Below the pieces are notes generated by a model that searched no databases, was not told the DNA's origin, and worked only from the letters and a program-made list of their open reading frames with translations. DNA of 64,000 nt from Gammaproteobacteria bacterium. Its GTDB lineage: Bacteria > Pseudomonadota > Gammaproteobacteria > Steroidobacterales > Steroidobacteraceae. Location of the stretch: contig JAJFKF010000018.1 in NCBI GenBank assembly GCA_021773365.1, positions 1 to 64,000 of the forward strand, read 5' to 3'. Below are positions 58,699-63,658 of this stretch, one piece after another. Within the stretch, counting starts at the first letter, position 1. Each line of letters begins with the position of its first letter. Made by a program: the position numbers and the translations under genes.

Positions 58699-60144
58699 TC
58701 AGCTGAAAGTTATCGTGCGCTGCGGCTGCTCGCTGAGGCCCGCGAGAAAGGCCCACACCGGCAGCGTAGCCACATCGGGCTGCCAATCGAACACGTCGCG
58801 AGAGAGCACCAGCCCTTGTTTGAATCGGCTTCTGATGGCAGATCTTGCGCGGGACAACCCTGCTGCATTATCACCCTTGAGTTCGATCGGCAGGCGCGGC
58901 CGCTGCAGATCAGTGACGCAGGGAATCATGAAATCGATCTCGCGATCATTGCTGGACCGCCAGTATCCAACCGCTCCCGGTATCGCCGATGCCTGGATCA
59001 ACGCCTGCGCCGCAGCCCGAAACAATCCCGCCGCCGCCACCGACTCCACCAGACCGTCAGTGGATGGCAGCGACGTCACAGGAATAAGTGCGTGCGGGAC
59101 CTGCGCGAACAGCGGATCCAGCAAGTAAAGTTTACGTTGTTTGTTCGGCTCCAGGCTGTTGTCGCCGATATCCCAGTAGTACAAGGTTAGAAGCGTAAAT
59201 ATCTCCGCCAGAAACTCTGCATAGTCCCGCGCTGTATGGGGACTGGCCACGCCCATGGCGCGGCTCGCCGCCAGCCAACTCAGGGGAGAACCCAGTGATT
59301 CGCCCACCGCCTGCAGGAGCTTGAGCGCGGCCGTGCGGTCACGCATGGATCTGGAGATGTCACCGGAGATCACATCCCACAACATCTGCAGAGTTTCGCT
59401 GGAGACTGTGCGGCCATCGCCCTGCAATGCATCATTTGTTGCTGTGGGGAATCCGCCCACGCGCAGGTAACCGTCGAAAGCATCGCGTAGAACGGGGCCC
59501 TGTGACACCAGCCGTGCGGCGATCCCCTCACCCCGAGCGGTCAGAAAGTCTTCAGCCGCGATAGGCTCATCGTCGAAATGTACGCCGTGCAGTGCAAGAC
59601 AGTAGTCGCGGAAGGACATCGGGAGCTGCAGGTAGTCCTTGCCCCTGCCTCTGCGGCCCGGCAAACGTTCAGCGCCGCGTTTCAAATCGTGTGCGGAGGA
59701 CGCCGTCAGCAGCAGCGCATCGTCGGCAGTCAATCCCGCATCCCATGCGGCTCTGACACCGAGCTGCCAGTCCGGCAGCGCGGTGATTTCATCAAAAAAC
59801 AGATACCAGGGTCCCTTGGGGGCAGGGTGCAGGCGCTTGGCGGCACGCACCAACTCGCCGATTATCGTAGCCTCCTGCGGCACATCGAAGGAGACATACA
59901 AAATGCGGGATTCGCCCGCATCAACCAGGCGGCGGATCATGCGCTTCAGGGTCGTGGTCTTTCCCGCCTGCCGCGGGCCGCGCAGGGTATGGGTATCCTC
60001 GAACCTTAGTTGAATGGCCTTCAGCGGCGCCGGATCCCATTTCACCTGGCTACGTTCCAGACGCCGCAGATGCAAGTCGTCCCCCATACCCTGACCGAAC
60101 CACCAGGGATGTGTTTCCCGCAGTTTCTCGTCGGATATAGACAT
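58699..60144 (-). CDS. DUF4143-type ATPase (AAA_14)
   Basis: This 481-residue protein has an AAA P-loop GPRQAGKTT at 56-64, a Walker B WYLFFDEITAL at 113-123, an arginine-rich central part (LLTASSAHDLKRGAERLPGR), and a C-terminal DUF4143 region with a PD-(D/E)XK-like end (REIDFMIP, then LPIELKGDN). Such ATPases are frequent, variable and of unknown function; links with toxin-antitoxin or phage defence are speculated. Its ATG at 60144 lies inside a perfect dyad, so the gene is probably autoregulated. It abuts the receptor relic. Confidence 0.88.
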   Translation of the reverse strand: MSISDEKLRETHPWWFGQGMGDDLHLRRLERSQVKWDPAPLKAIQLRFEDTHTLRGPRQAGKTTTLKRMIRRLVDAGESRILYVSFDVPQEATIIGELVRAAKRLHPAPKGPWYLFFDEITALPDWQLGVRAAWDAGLTADDALLLTASSAHDLKRGAERLPGRRGRGKDYLQLPMSFRDYCLALHGVHFDDEPIAAEDFLTARGEGIAARLVSQGPVLRDAFDGYLRVGGFPTATNDALQGDGRTVSSETLQMLWDVISGDISRSMRDRTAALKLLQAVGESLGSPLSWLAASRAMGVASPHTARDYAEFLAEIFTLLTLYYWDIGDNSLEPNKQRKLYLLDPLFAQVPHALIPVTSLPSTDGLVESVAAAGLFRAAAQALIQASAIPGAVGYWRSSNDREIDFMIPCVTDLQRPRLPIELKGDNAAGLSRARSAIRSRFKQGLVLSRDVFDWQPDVATLPVWAFLAGLSEQPQRTITFS

Positions 60145-60192
60145 AAATACCCCCTATATTTGCAGAACGATGCAAATATAGGGGGTATTTAT
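60143..60192. repeat. perfect 22-bp inverted repeat over the ATPase start codon
   Basis: Two 22-base arms, at 60143-60164 and 60171-60192, are perfect reverse complements separated by 6 bases (GAACGA). Each arm contains AAATACCCCC and TATATTTGCA. The ATPase ATG (60144-60142 on the minus strand) lies at the end of the first arm. It can act as a dyad operator at DNA level or as a hairpin near the mRNA start. The regulator is not known. Confidence 0.9.
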
Positions 60193-60483
60193 TGGCAATG
60201 CAACGCTCATGGGTGCGCCAGACGTAGCCGGCGAACGAGGGCGACATCGTCCTGCTCGACAGCGTACCAGCGGCGCTGGAGCATGGAGAACCGGTGCTGC
60301 TGAGGGGTAGATTGCCCACGACTTTCAATTAACCGCGCCAATTTCACCGGATTTCAGGGCTGTTCGGAATGTACCCACGCGTCATTGAGCGCCAGATAAG
60401 GGCGGCCTTGTCCGATGCCCGGGCCATCGGTTCGGTTCCGGCGCTCAAGATCGATGCCGCGGCCGTGGCACGGTCGATAACCT
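60193..60483. other. intergenic stretch with fragmentary coding traces
   Basis: This 291-base stretch has no complete gene. At 60369 on the plus strand a frame starts MYPRVIERQIRAALSD, resembling the usual beginning of DUF4143 ATPases, but loses the P-loop that should follow. Short open frames on the minus strand near 60200-60330 have no recognised family. Confidence 0.35.
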
Positions 60484-60723
60484 TCAGCGCGCACGGGCTG
60501 CACCATTCGCTACTTCGGCATCCGCAAGGACCTGTGCTTCGGCTTCCAGACGCAGGATGGTATCAACATCGCCGCCACGAAGATGGCGGTGACGACGCAT
60601 CAGGACGGTGCCGCCGCCGAAACTCCAGTTGGCAATCGTGGTTCCTCTCGCCTGCACCGCATCGATCAGCGTGAGCGTGCGCTGAAACAGTGTTTCCCAG
60701 ATTCTGAGTTGATCGTCCGTCAT
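60484..60723 (-). pseudogene. N-terminal remnant of an AbiEii-like nucleotidyltransferase
   Basis: From the ATG at 60723 the frame reads QRTLTLIDAVQARG, then NWSFGGGTVLMRRHRH, which is the start of the nucleotidyltransferase core (GG-T/S motif) of AbiEii-type toxins. After RHRH homology fades (RGGDVDTILRLEAEA) and the protein ends after 79 residues, against more than 200 in complete members. Its ATG overlaps the stop of a preceding frame (ATGA), as in a normal two-gene operon. Confidence 0.6.
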
Positions 60724-61078
60724 GCTCCCTTCTCCGGTGCGCCAAGCTGCTGAGCGAGCTTCACGAGATTCTGCTCCACCTTGCCGGGTTTGGCCCACTG
60801 GCTGACCTGCCGGACCAGCCCCTCCATGATCGCTGGCGCGGCCTCTTCGAGCAGGACGCGCATATGCGGACGGCGGGTATCTCCACCACATCCATGGCAA
60901 GCCCCAACTGCTCCAGAATGGCATTTATCTTCCGGATGCCGAGATCCTCGACGACGCCGTTTTCCAGGCGATTGAGCGTGGTGCGGGTAACCCTGGCGGC
61001 GGCCGCAAGCTGCGCCTGCGTCAGGCCCCGGTCATTGCGGGCCCTGCGGAGGAAGTCACCGAGAATGATGTGCTGCGC
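60720..61078 (-). pseudogene. frameshifted XRE-family regulator
   Basis: One frame gives a clear HTH: LGDFLRRARNDRGLTQAQL, AAAARVTRTTLNRLENGVV, then EDLGIRKINAILEQLGLAMD down to about 60880. A second frame, offset and starting at ATG 60863, carries EEAAPAIMEGLVRQVSQWAK and runs to 60720 with an ATGA overlap with the AbiEii-like remnant. The two are best read as one gene broken by a frameshift near 60865-60895. The 5' end lacks a start codon in frame. Confidence 0.6.
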
Positions 61079-61387
61079 GAACTGCTGGGCTTGCCACGCA
61101 AGGGCGCTGGCCCGAGGAAGAACTCCGCACCCGCGCCCGATGACTGGATCACCAAAGGCGTACGACTGCCGGCCGGCACCGAGCTGCGCGCGACATACAA
61201 AGGAAAAACCTATCTCGCGCGCGTCAACGCCGGCGCACTGGTGATGGGCGGGCAGCGATTCGACAGCCCGTCAGCCGCCGCCATGAAGATCACCGCTCAT
61301 CCGGTCAATGGCTGGACCTTCTGGGAATGCCGCCTGCCGGGCCAGGGCGGGTGGCAGGTATTGAAGGCGCTGCGCAGATCGACCTGA
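61070..61387 (+). CDS. RAMA-domain small protein
   Basis: A GTG at 61070 opens a 105-residue frame. Residues about 28-100 match the RAMA domain (restriction enzyme adenine methylase associated): GVRLPAGTELRATYKGKTYL, SPSAAAMKITAHPVNGWTFW, then GGWQVLKALR. Such domains bind DNA or modified DNA and occur in methylases and defence proteins. The start is uncertain; the frame is open upstream, antisense to the XRE remnant. It overlaps the ATPase fragment downstream. Confidence 0.6.
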   Translation: MLRELLGLPRKGAGPRKNSAPAPDDWITKGVRLPAGTELRATYKGKTYLARVNAGALVMGGQRFDSPSAAAMKITAHPVNGWTFWECRLPGQGGWQVLKALRRST

Positions 61388-61656
61388 TGTTCATCCGCAA
61401 GGACTCGAAACTCATCGTCTGCGAAATCAAGTACAACAACGAGTCCACGCTCAACCGCCAGGTCATCCGGGAAACGCAGGCTATGGTCGACGCCTTCCTC
61501 GCGGCGAACCCCAGGTACGCCCGCTACACGGTGGAGACAGCGCTGATCAGCACCGAGCCTGTGCCCGAAAGCATCCGGCTGGAAGCCTATTTCACTTACC
61601 TGGTGACCGGTTCGGACCTGCTGGCGGCATCGCGGATGCTGGCATCCAGCGCATAA
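61327..61656 (+). pseudogene. C-terminal remnant of a DUF234/ATPase_2-like ATPase
   Basis: From about 61366 the frame reads GAAQIDLMFIRKDSKLIVCE, then IKYNNESTLNRQV, matching the PD-(D/E)XK-like C-terminus of archaeal-type ATPases (ATPase_2 with DUF234). The P-loop part is missing. A possible start ATG at 61387 overlaps the RAMA stop as TGATG, so an 89-residue product could still be made. The tail ends LAASRMLASSA. Confidence 0.55.
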
Positions 61657-61710
61657 CAGCGCTGCGTAAGTTTCTTCTTTAAATTCAACGGGATGGCAGG
61701 TTGTTTGCAG

Positions 61711-61758
61711 ATCCACATCAGCAATGTGGATAATCCACGGCCTTGATGTAGATTATCC
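61711..61758. promoter_or_regulatory. overlapping dyads upstream of the second DUF4143 ATPase
   Basis: ATCCACAT (61711-61718) and ATGTGGAT (61724-61731) form one dyad, GTGGATAATCCAC (61726-61738) is a palindrome on its own, and GGATAATC (61728-61735) is repeated in reverse as GATTATCC (61751-61758). The set ends 9 bases before the ATPase start and looks like an operator region. Confidence 0.5.
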
Positions 61759-61767
61759 GGACTTGCC

Positions 61768-63012
61768 ATGACCCCTTCACCGAACCCATCCGCCGTCCTG
61801 CCGCGCGCCGCAGCGCCCCTGCTGGACACGGCGCTCGACACCATGAGAGTGGTCGTCGTGACCGGGGCCCGCCAGACCGGCAAGAGCACGCTGGTCCACA
61901 CTCACCCGCGGCTGTCCGGATATCCCCACTTCACGCTCGACGATGCGGCCACCTTGATGCGGGTGCGCGCCGACCGGCAGGCTTTTCTGCGCAGCGAGCC
62001 GCGCATGAGCATCGACGAAGTGCAGCGCGATCCGGAATTGATGCTGGCGATCAAAACCGTGGTCGATTCACAGCGGCCGCAGCGCCGCGGACAGTTCGTG
62101 CTCACGGGCTCGGCGAATCTGCTGATGATGAAACATGTCGGGGATTCCCTGGCGGGCCGTGCGTACTACCTGCGTCTGCACCCACTCACCCGCAGCGAGC
62201 AACTGGGTCAGGGCGCCACGGGCATCTGGTCCCGGCTGTTCGACTCCGAGCCCGCCCAGTGGCTGGACCTGGTGCGCGAACAGGCATCGCCGCCGTGGGA
62301 CTGGCGCGAGGCCGTCCAGCACGGTGGCTTTCCAGCGCCGTCCATCGAACTCGACAACGCCCGCACCCGGGCGCTGTGGTTCGAGGGTTACATTGCCACT
62401 TACCTGGAGCGAGACCTGCGCGATCTGCAGGCGGTGACCAACCTGCATAACTTCCAATTGCTCATGCAGGCGGCGGCGCTTCGCATCGGCAATCTCCTGA
62501 ACCACACCGAACTGGGCCGCGACGTGAAGATGCCCTCCACCACGGTGCATCAGTACATGAACCTTCTGGACACCTCATTCCAGGCCACCCGGCTCCTGCC
62601 CTACGCGGTCAATCGCGGCAAACGTCTCATCAAGACACCCAAACTGTACTGGAATGATGTGGGCCTCGCCTTGCACCTGGGCGGGGCCACGCCGGGTGGT
62701 GAGCACCTGGAAAATCTGGTGCTCACCGATCTGCTCGCGTGGAAGGAAACCGAATCTCCGCGGCCGGAGGTCTCGTACTGGCGCACCTCGCAGGGCGAAG
62801 AAGTCGATTTCGTCATCACCCGCAAACGGCAGCTCCTGGCGGTCGAAGTCAAGGCAGGCGCAGCCCCCGCCCCACGGGATGCGCGGCACCTGCGCACCTT
62901 CTGCGATGAATATGGCTCACGAGCCCATGGCGGCTTGCTCCTGCACGGCGGAGAAGAAACGTACTGGCTGGGGGAAAAAATCCTGGCCACGCCTTGGTGG
63001 CGGGTGCTTTGA
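61768..63012 (+). CDS. DUF4143-type ATPase (AAA_14)
   Basis: This 414-residue protein has the P-loop GARQTGKST at 33-41, Walker B in PRMSIDEVQRDPELMLAIK, the sensor segment VLTGSANLLMMKHVGDSLAG, and the DUF4143 C-terminal part (ESPRPEVSYWRTSQGEEVDF, then LLAVEVKAG), a PD-(D/E)XK-like fold end. It is shorter than the ATPase at 58699 and belongs to the same broad family. Upstream dyads suggest autoregulation. Biological role unknown. Ends about 100 bases before an AbiE pair. Confidence 0.9.
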   Translation: MTPSPNPSAVLPRAAAPLLDTALDTMRVVVVTGARQTGKSTLVHTHPRLSGYPHFTLDDAATLMRVRADRQAFLRSEPRMSIDEVQRDPELMLAIKTVVDSQRPQRRGQFVLTGSANLLMMKHVGDSLAGRAYYLRLHPLTRSEQLGQGATGIWSRLFDSEPAQWLDLVREQASPPWDWREAVQHGGFPAPSIELDNARTRALWFEGYIATYLERDLRDLQAVTNLHNFQLLMQAAALRIGNLLNHTELGRDVKMPSTTVHQYMNLLDTSFQATRLLPYAVNRGKRLIKTPKLYWNDVGLALHLGGATPGGEHLENLVLTDLLAWKETESPRPEVSYWRTSQGEEVDFVITRKRQLLAVEVKAGAAPAPRDARHLRTFCDEYGSRAHGGLLLHGGEETYWLGEKILATPWWRVL

Positions 63013-63109: not shown

Positions 63110-63658
63110 ATGAAAAAGTCGCACGCCACCGAAGTCTTACGGCATTGGGACAGTAAGGGCCGGTACGTCTTTACCCGGCGCGAACTGGCCAGGCTGTTCC
63201 CGTCCGACGGGCCACGGACTTTCGGTGAGGGTCTGAACCGGCTGGTGAAAAGCGGGCTGTTGGTCCGCGCCTGCCGCGGCGTTTTCGCCAATCCGCATGC
63301 GCAGTCCTTCGACAGCTACGCCGCAGAACGCATCGCCAGGGCCCTGCGGCCGGGTGAATACAACTACGTAAGCCTGGAGTCGATGCTGTCCGAGTACGGC
63401 GCGATCTCACAGATCCCCGTCGACCGGCTGACGGTGATGACCACCGGGCGCAAGGGCACGTACCGGACACCCTACGGCGTCATCGAATTCACGCACACCG
63501 CGCGGCCGGCGCGCGACATCATCGGACAGATCAAACAGGTGAACGGCCGGCCGCTGCGCATCGCCAGCAAGGCTGCCGCCTGGCGTGACCTGAAACGCGT
63601 GGGACGCAATGTACAAATGGTGGACCGGGAAATCGTGGAGGCGGCTGACGATGAGTGA
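63110..63658 (+). CDS. AbiEi-family type IV antitoxin
   Basis: This 182-residue protein has a winged-helix N-terminus (YVFTRRELARLFPSDGPRTF, GEGLNRLVKSGLLVRACRG) and the AbiEi core (GEYNYVSLESMLSEYGAISQ, VMTTGRKGTYRTPYGVIEF). It neutralises the AbiEii toxin without binding it directly in known systems and represses the operon. No ribosome site is seen before the ATG, so it may be translated from a short or absent leader. It overlaps the toxin gene by 8 bases. Confidence 0.88.
   Translation: MKKSHATEVLRHWDSKGRYVFTRRELARLFPSDGPRTFGEGLNRLVKSGLLVRACRGVFANPHAQSFDSYAAERIARALRPGEYNYVSLESMLSEYGAISQIPVDRLTVMTTGRKGTYRTPYGVIEFTHTARPARDIIGQIKQVNGRPLRIASKAAAWRDLKRVGRNVQMVDREIVEAADDE

What the first reader, a model, noticed from the sequence alone, without database searches (positions are those of the whole stretch)
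60143..60192. Start codon of a DUF4143 ATPase lies inside a perfect 22-bp dyad
Sequence shows two 22-base arms separated by 6 bases, perfect without a mismatch, with the ATG of the ATPase gene at one end. The GGGGG/CCCCC blocks flanked by AT-rich parts give a strong hairpin as well as a DNA dyad. Such an arrangement can both bind a regulator and occlude or mark translation start. Autoregulation by the ATPase itself is possible inference, which would make the unit self-contained.
Basis: partly seen in the sequence, partly recalled or inferred. Interest (0 to 1): 0.62.

Follow-up and report, generated by a model that had tools for sequence, protein, structure and literature searches.

The report
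Private operator on an ATPase-nuclease's start codon
The perfect 22-base mirror repeat is real and is probably the on/off switch that this gene carries for itself; across bacteria and archaea, many genes of the same family (one of the commonest untested anti-virus candidates) carry their own differently spelled switch in the same place, so each looks like a self-controlled unit.

Summary
Observation confirmed: two perfect 22-bp arms with a 6-nt spacer at 60143-60192, the only local perfect inverted repeat above 11 bp in the window (shuffles reach 12). The ATG of an AAA_14+DUF4143 gene (58699-60144, minus) overlaps its edge. But other family members have their own, differently spelled repeats in the same place. 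Of 284 distinct DUF4143 genes from many phyla, 132 (46%) have a strong dyad or a direct repeat at 22-24 or 32-33 bp in the start region, against 18 of 260 control genes (7%). These spacings are about two or three helical turns, and the spacing class follows protein phylogeny (11 changes; 31 expected). Near-consensus promoters placing transcription start at the ATG are about 18-fold enriched; Shine-Dalgarno motifs are depleted. The protein models as a STAND/Orc-like ATPase with a winged helix and a restriction-type nuclease domain; PADLOC lists the family as defence candidate PDC-S01. Best reading: a gene-private DNA operator for transcriptional autoregulation by the ATPase itself. Binding is inferred, not shown; a domain-level test did not single out the winged helix, and the window gene's own promoter is weak.

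The parts
60143..60164 (.). left arm of the dyad (ATAAATACCCCCTATATTTGCA)
60165..60170 (.). 6-nt spacer of the dyad; dyad centre lies 23.5 nt upstream of the ATG of the minus-strand gene
60171..60192 (.). right arm of the dyad (TGCAAATATAGGGGGTATTTAT)
60150..60154 (-). CCCCC on +, GGGGG on the gene strand, 5 nt before the ATG; could serve as a weak Shine-Dalgarno (inference). Centre-to-centre distance to the other tract (60181-60185) is 31 bp, about three helical turns
   Evidence: sequence read directly
60175..60203 (-). possible weak promoter: TTGCAT (60203-60198), 17-nt spacer, TATATT (60180-60175), with the -10 inside the dyad; below the tool's threshold
   Evidence: read by eye; one search found no promoter above threshold
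58699..60144 (-). P0001, 481 aa: AAA_14 STAND-type ATPase, winged helix about 270-341, PD-(D/E)XK-like nuclease domain about 362-470 (E402, D404, E421, K423); PADLOC PDC-S01 family
61768..63012 (+). second AAA_14+DUF4143 gene of the window (PDC-S01, E 4e-111)
61711..61753 (+). upstream repeat of the second gene: ATCCACATCAGCAATGTGGAT (61711-61731) and ATCCACGGCCTTGATGTAGAT (61733-61753), 22-bp spacing, ending 14 nt before its ATG; below the family threshold (score 7), but its consensus fits nowhere else in the genome except one 1-mismatch site

Best explanation
The dyad is a gene-private DNA operator covering the promoter, transcription start and start codon of an AAA_14/DUF4143 ATPase-nuclease. 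The encoded protein, as an oligomer, most likely binds this symmetric site and represses its own transcription; when it is titrated away or switched by a trigger such as an invader, expression rises. Many family members have their own site sequence, built as inverted repeats or as direct repeats two or three helical turns apart. Shown by computation: the repeats, their enrichment, position, spacing, uniqueness and co-inheritance with the protein. Inferred: that the protein itself binds, that binding represses, and what relieves it.
For: (1) Combined set of 284 distinct genes: inverted repeat score >=12 or phased direct repeat score >=10 in 46.5%, controls 6.9%, shuffles 0.8%. First set alone: 38/174 against 14/260 dyads, Fisher p=3e-7. 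(2) Direct-repeat spacings in the first set were 22, 23, 24, 32 and 33 bp (9, 7, 8, 23, 12 genes) with about 0.7 at any other spacing; controls had 3, 2, 2, 0, 0. (3) Spacing class follows the protein tree: 11 changes against 31.3 in shuffles, 0 of 200 as low. (4) A prediction noted before analysis held: new relatives of a 32-bp member had 32-bp repeats in 13 of 26 (score >=8; mean 0.21 at other spacings). (5) Near-consensus promoters whose -10 ends 4-12 nt before the ATG: 35/257 against 2/260; SD-like motifs 41/257 against 114/260. (6) Upstream similarity falls to near background below about 50% protein identity. (7) All three operators tested are essentially private in this genome. (8) In the window gene's clade the dyad centre stays 19.5-26.5 nt before the ATG in four members despite unrelated sequence. 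(9) The model has a STAND/Orc-like ATPase with a winged helix and matches DNA-bound Orc1/Cdc6. (10) Annotated isolates show the pattern: an Azotobacter chroococcum gene has an 18-bp-arm dyad ending in its annotated ATG, and Agrobacterium fabrum has 22-bp-spaced repeats.
Against: No binding or expression data. About half of the family shows no repeat above threshold. A hold-out of 84 top-scoring DUF4143 genes had many dyads (31/84) but direct repeats at the preset spacings in only 3, so spacing is clade-specific. Operator similarity does not correlate specifically with identity in the winged helix (partial r 0.04; nuclease domain 0.17). The window gene has no promoter above threshold, and its GGGGG could act as an SD. 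Start codons are inferred for most genes. Control genes were matched for intergenic position, not for being regulators or defence genes.
Confidence: 0.7

Rival explanations
1. RNA hairpin: the transcript starts upstream of the dyad and the stem hides the GGGGG ribosome site and the ATG, giving translational control.
For: Very stable stem (-47.8 kcal/mol, z -7.5) that would bury GGGGG and AUG.
Against: Many relatives use direct repeats, which cannot form such a stem; many palindromes have 0-1 nt loops, and G-T mismatches are rarer than A-C (8 against 19), not enriched; many promoters put transcription start at or near the ATG, so the left arm would not be transcribed.
Confidence: 0.1
2. The operator is read by a host transcription factor (for example a stress or defence regulator), not by the encoded protein.
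For: A dyad over a promoter is a usual repressor site, and the domain test did not implicate the winged helix.
Against: Sites are private to single genes in the genome, unlike a regulon, and their geometry follows this protein's phylogeny across phyla.
Confidence: 0.1
3. The protein binds the repeats for another purpose: as a self-recognition or parking site that holds the nuclease inactive, or as an iteron-like initiation or cleavage site.
For: Iteron-like direct repeats at helical spacing, Orc/Cdc6-like fold, and a nuclease domain whose divergence correlates best with operator divergence.
Against: Repeats sit over promoter and start codon rather than elsewhere; no second copy of the site in this genome.
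Confidence: 0.12
4. Chance or mobile-repeat origin: the dyad is an end or copy of a dispersed palindromic element that landed by the gene.
For: Arrays of a similar 23-bp unit (AAATAGGGGGTATTTATG...) are dispersed in one Kiritimatiellae MAG away from such genes.
Against: Single site in this genome; no DNA match in phages; strong family-wide association of dyads with this gene.
Confidence: 0.03

Closest known systems
PDC-S01 phage-defence candidate (AAA_14/DUF4143, COG1373)
   Same: P0001 and the second window gene match PADLOC PDC-S01 models; ATPase plus PD-(D/E)XK layout as described (PMC12988326)
   Different: No description of an upstream operator was found; experimental validation is described as pending for most PDCs
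AbiEi antitoxin autoregulation (type IV toxin-antitoxin)
   Same: A defence-associated protein binds inverted repeats in its own promoter and represses it (PMC7319586 abstract); an AbiEi gene also lies at 63110-63658
   Different: AbiEi is an antitoxin in a two-gene operon; here a single gene would encode both regulator and predicted effector, and no AAA_14 protein is involved in AbiE
Plasmid Rep proteins with iterons and Orc1/Cdc6 initiators (function from general knowledge)
   Same: Winged-helix proteins that bind direct and inverted repeats, iterons being spaced at about two turns, and Rep proteins also repressing their own gene; P0001 aligns with DNA-bound Orc1/Cdc6 (2qby Z 11.7, 2v1u Z 11.3)
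   Different: Sites here are at the gene's own start region, unique in the genome and not a known origin; the protein carries a nuclease domain
SSO1545 (2fna) and PABY2304 (2qen) archaeal STAND ATPases
   Same: Same ATPase plus winged-helix core (Z 16.2 and 15.9)
   Different: No operator is known to me for them

Membership tests
PDC-S01 (AAA_14/DUF4143 ATPase-nuclease) | AAA_14 and DUF4143 domains above Pfam cut-offs | tested here: met
   76 bits (cut-off 27) and 30.4 bits (cut-off 28.1)
PDC-S01 (AAA_14/DUF4143 ATPase-nuclease) | PADLOC PDC-S01 model match | tested here: met
   E 2.1e-19
PDC-S01 (AAA_14/DUF4143 ATPase-nuclease) | ATPase fused to a PD-(D/E)XK-type nuclease domain with conserved E-x-D...E-x-K | tested here: met
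   invariant E402, D404, E421, K423; C-terminal model's matches are mostly restriction-endonuclease-like, Z 4.5-7.6, Foldseek alone not significant
PDC-S01 (AAA_14/DUF4143 ATPase-nuclease) | antiviral activity | not testable with these tools
   needs phage assays
autoregulatory operator | symmetric or repeated site over the promoter/start region, enriched in the gene family | tested here: met
   132/284 against 18/260
autoregulatory operator | site private to its gene in the genome | tested here: met
   three operators searched in the own genome
autoregulatory operator | site geometry co-inherited with the protein | tested here: met
   11 changes against 31.3 expected
autoregulatory operator | divergence of the DNA-reading domain explains divergence of the site | tested here: inconclusive
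   bootstrap partial r winged helix 0.04, AAA 0.12, nuclease 0.18
autoregulatory operator | the protein binds the site and represses its promoter | not testable with these tools
   needs gel shift and reporter assay
leaderless promoter of the family | near-consensus -35/-10 with the -10 ending 4-12 nt before the ATG, at the window gene | tested here: not met
   family-wide enrichment, but no promoter above threshold at this gene
intrinsic terminator | GC-rich stem followed by a T run | tested here: not met
   none found
dispersed palindromic repeat | several copies in the genome | tested here: not met
   one site only
AbiE toxin-antitoxin | AbiEi antitoxin with AbiEii partner as the regulated gene | tested here: not met
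   P0001 is AAA_14/DUF4143; the AbiEi gene is 3 kb away

The most novel reading that the evidence does not exclude
The DUF4143/PDC-S01 family, among the commonest candidate defence genes in prokaryotes, is a one-gene self-contained system in which each copy carries a private operator, made of inverted repeats or of direct repeats two or three helical turns apart, lying over its promoter and start codon and co-evolving with the ATPase-nuclease that reads it; the operator insulates paralogues from each other and may also hold the nuclease in check until an invader displaces it.
Probability: 0.5. Interest if true: 0.75.

Novelty: new variant of a known kind. Interest (0 to 1): 0.62.

Why it matters
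PDC-S01 is reported as the fourth most common defence system across prokaryotes and is unvalidated (PMC12988326); a genome may hold 10-20 copies. A private operator gives a direct handle on what the protein binds, how many subunits bind, and why many paralogues can coexist. It makes the family testable: each gene supplies its own predicted ligand DNA.

Tried and rejected
The 20-mer is not conserved across 398 genomes of the phylum. No viral homologue of P0001 was found; six viral contigs hold the 17-mer exactly but were not examined. Plasmids gave one distant homologue. Direct-repeat spacing did not replicate in the canonical top-scoring clade. The domain-wise correlation did not point to the winged helix. 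Literature: DUF4143 occurs in one held paper and COG1373 in seven, the latter seen as titles and abstracts only. In Thermus thermophilus HB27 a DUF4143 gene, TT_P0211, rises 6.6-fold when wild type carries a plasmid (PMC4406477); I did not establish that it is the gene read, and the authors link the effect to Argonaute.

Full report
Observation. The dyad is as described: 22-nt arms at 60143-60164 and 60171-60192, perfect, 6 nt apart. It is the only perfect local inverted repeat above 11 bp in 64 kb, and whole-window shuffles reach 10-12. The minus-strand gene 58699-60144 begins with an ATG whose first two bases lie in the dyad. Its 481-aa product has AAA_14 and DUF4143 domains and matches PADLOC's phage-defence candidate PDC-S01.

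The sequence itself is not shared. With up to 3 mismatches the 19-base core of the arm occurs only here in the genome, and a 20-mer with 2 mismatches is not at homologues in 398 genomes. A scan of genome contigs gave chance-level hits plus one dispersed repeat in a Kiritimatiellae MAG, unrelated to the gene family.

The arrangement is shared. The 52% identical paralogue (L131) has AACCCCGG..AAATTTAAT-6-ATTAAATTT..GGGGTC before its ATG. In this clade the dyad centre lies 23.5, 26.5, 25.0 and 19.5 nt upstream of the ATG in P0001, L131, L348 and L168, with unrelated sequences. Other paralogues and homologues carry their own dyads, up to 35-bp perfect arms (L479).

Enrichment. I collected DUF4143 genes from the own genome, relatives and a wide set of phyla. 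In a 260-nt start region, inverted repeats scoring >=12 occur in 38 of 174 genes against 14 of 260 control genes with intergenic upstream DNA (Fisher p=3e-7; Mann-Whitney p=7e-14). With two later sets added (284 distinct genes) a dyad or phased direct repeat is present in 46.5%, controls 6.9%, shuffles 0.8%.

Spacing. Direct repeats fall at 22, 23, 24, 32 or 33 bp (9, 7, 8, 23, 12 genes); other spacings average 0.7, and controls have 3, 2, 2, 0, 0. These are about two and three turns of B-DNA. On the protein tree the five classes need 11 changes, against 31.3 for shuffled labels, and two-turn against three-turn needs 4. Repeat sequences differ between genes and resemble each other mainly above about 50% protein identity. 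In the window gene the C5 and G5 tracts are 31 bp apart, centre to centre.

Replication. A hold-out of 84 genes, the top-scoring DUF4143 matches of the class, confirmed dyads (31/84) but had the preset direct-repeat spacings in only 3 genes, all 23 bp. So geometry is clade-specific. A prediction noted before analysis, that relatives of the 32-bp gene L160 should show 32 bp, held in 13 of 26 new genes at score >=8 (8 at >=10), with 0.21 at other spacings.

Promoters. Near-consensus -35/-10 pairs with the -10 ending 4-12 nt before the ATG, which imply leaderless or very short-leader mRNA, occur in 35 of 257 family genes and 2 of 260 controls; SD-like motifs in 41 of 257 against 114 of 260. Some dyads enclose or overlap these promoters, for example L346, L348 and L327. 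For the window gene no promoter passed the scan; a weak TTGCAT-17-TATATT pair at 60203-60175 would start transcription near the dyad centre (read by eye).

RNA or DNA. The window hairpin would be very stable, but the family's direct repeats, 0-1 nt loops and lack of G-U bias (G-T 8, A-C 19) argue for a DNA site.

The protein. The model (pLDDT 91.6) has a STAND/Orc-like ATPase and a winged helix; best matches are CED-4, plant NLRs, SSO1545 and PABY2304 (Z about 16), and DNA-bound Orc1/Cdc6 follows at Z 11-12. The winged helix is read from the order of helices and strands in the model. The C-terminal domain has invariant E402, D404, E421 and K423 and aligns mostly with restriction-endonuclease folds at modest Z. 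A test of which domain's divergence tracks operator divergence gave partial r 0.12 (AAA), 0.04 (winged helix) and 0.18 (nuclease) by bootstrap, so it did not identify the reader domain.

Privacy. Three operators of this genome were searched: the window dyad, that of the second DUF4143 gene (61711-61753; one extra 1-mismatch site) and that of L160. Each sits at its own gene. A host regulon is therefore unlikely, and the ATPase itself is the simplest reader.

Isolates. In PLSDB records, Azotobacter chroococcum GKQ51_RS23695 has an 18-bp-arm dyad whose right arm ends in the annotated ATG, Agrobacterium fabrum FY134_RS23945 has 22-bp-spaced repeats, Rhizobium sp. Pop5 has TAGCCG copies at multiples of 22 bp, and Ca. 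Rhabdochlamydia has a 32-bp repeat. Two Thermus thermophilus strains share a short dyad (TGAATGActaTCATTCA) ending 2-3 nt before the ATG.

Known context. PDC-S01 is reported as the fourth most common defence system across prokaryotes, with validation pending for most PDCs (PMC12988326). I found no description of its operator; the library lacks bioRxiv and most subscription papers, so absence is weak. AbiEi autoregulation through promoter inverted repeats (PMC7319586) is the nearest studied parallel.

Verdict. The autoregulation idea is supported at family level and unproven at the bench; I put it at 0.7.

Noticed in passing
L014, L049, L084, L095, L119 (Kiritimatiellae MAG JAFPNP01): Intergenic arrays of a 23-bp unit AAATAGGGGGTATTTATG..., three to four copies in either orientation, dispersed in one rumen MAG between unrelated genes; resembles the window arm but is not linked to DUF4143 genes.
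   Followed up: partly
60200-61700: Apparently decayed stretch between the two DUF4143 genes: short frames with RAMA/DUF2924-like similarity (61070-61387) and a fragment with a weak DUF234 match and an EIK-type motif (61327-61656), as in a worn defence island.
   Followed up: partly
63110-63658 (+): AbiEi-family antitoxin gene (NCBIfam equivalog NF047376, E 5.5e-73), about 100 nt downstream of the second DUF4143 gene.
   Followed up: no
L479, L464: Dyads with about 35-bp and 29-bp arms spanning promoter and ATG of L160-like DUF4143 genes, with recurring AATAGTC-TTGACTATT around the -35 in this clade.
   Followed up: partly
L367, L373, L375, L379, L402, L288: In the canonical DUF4143 clade, many dyads share a central AAGTTnnACTT-like core with gene-specific outer arms.
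   Followed up: no
L157, L180, L181, L187, L395, L413, L420, L496, L499: Members of the 22/23-bp spacing class repeat variants of one core (about AATTRGMCG) across different classes.
   Followed up: no
G000 contigs: The genome holds 14 DUF4143 matches on 12 contigs, and some unrelated genomes hold over 20.
   Followed up: partly
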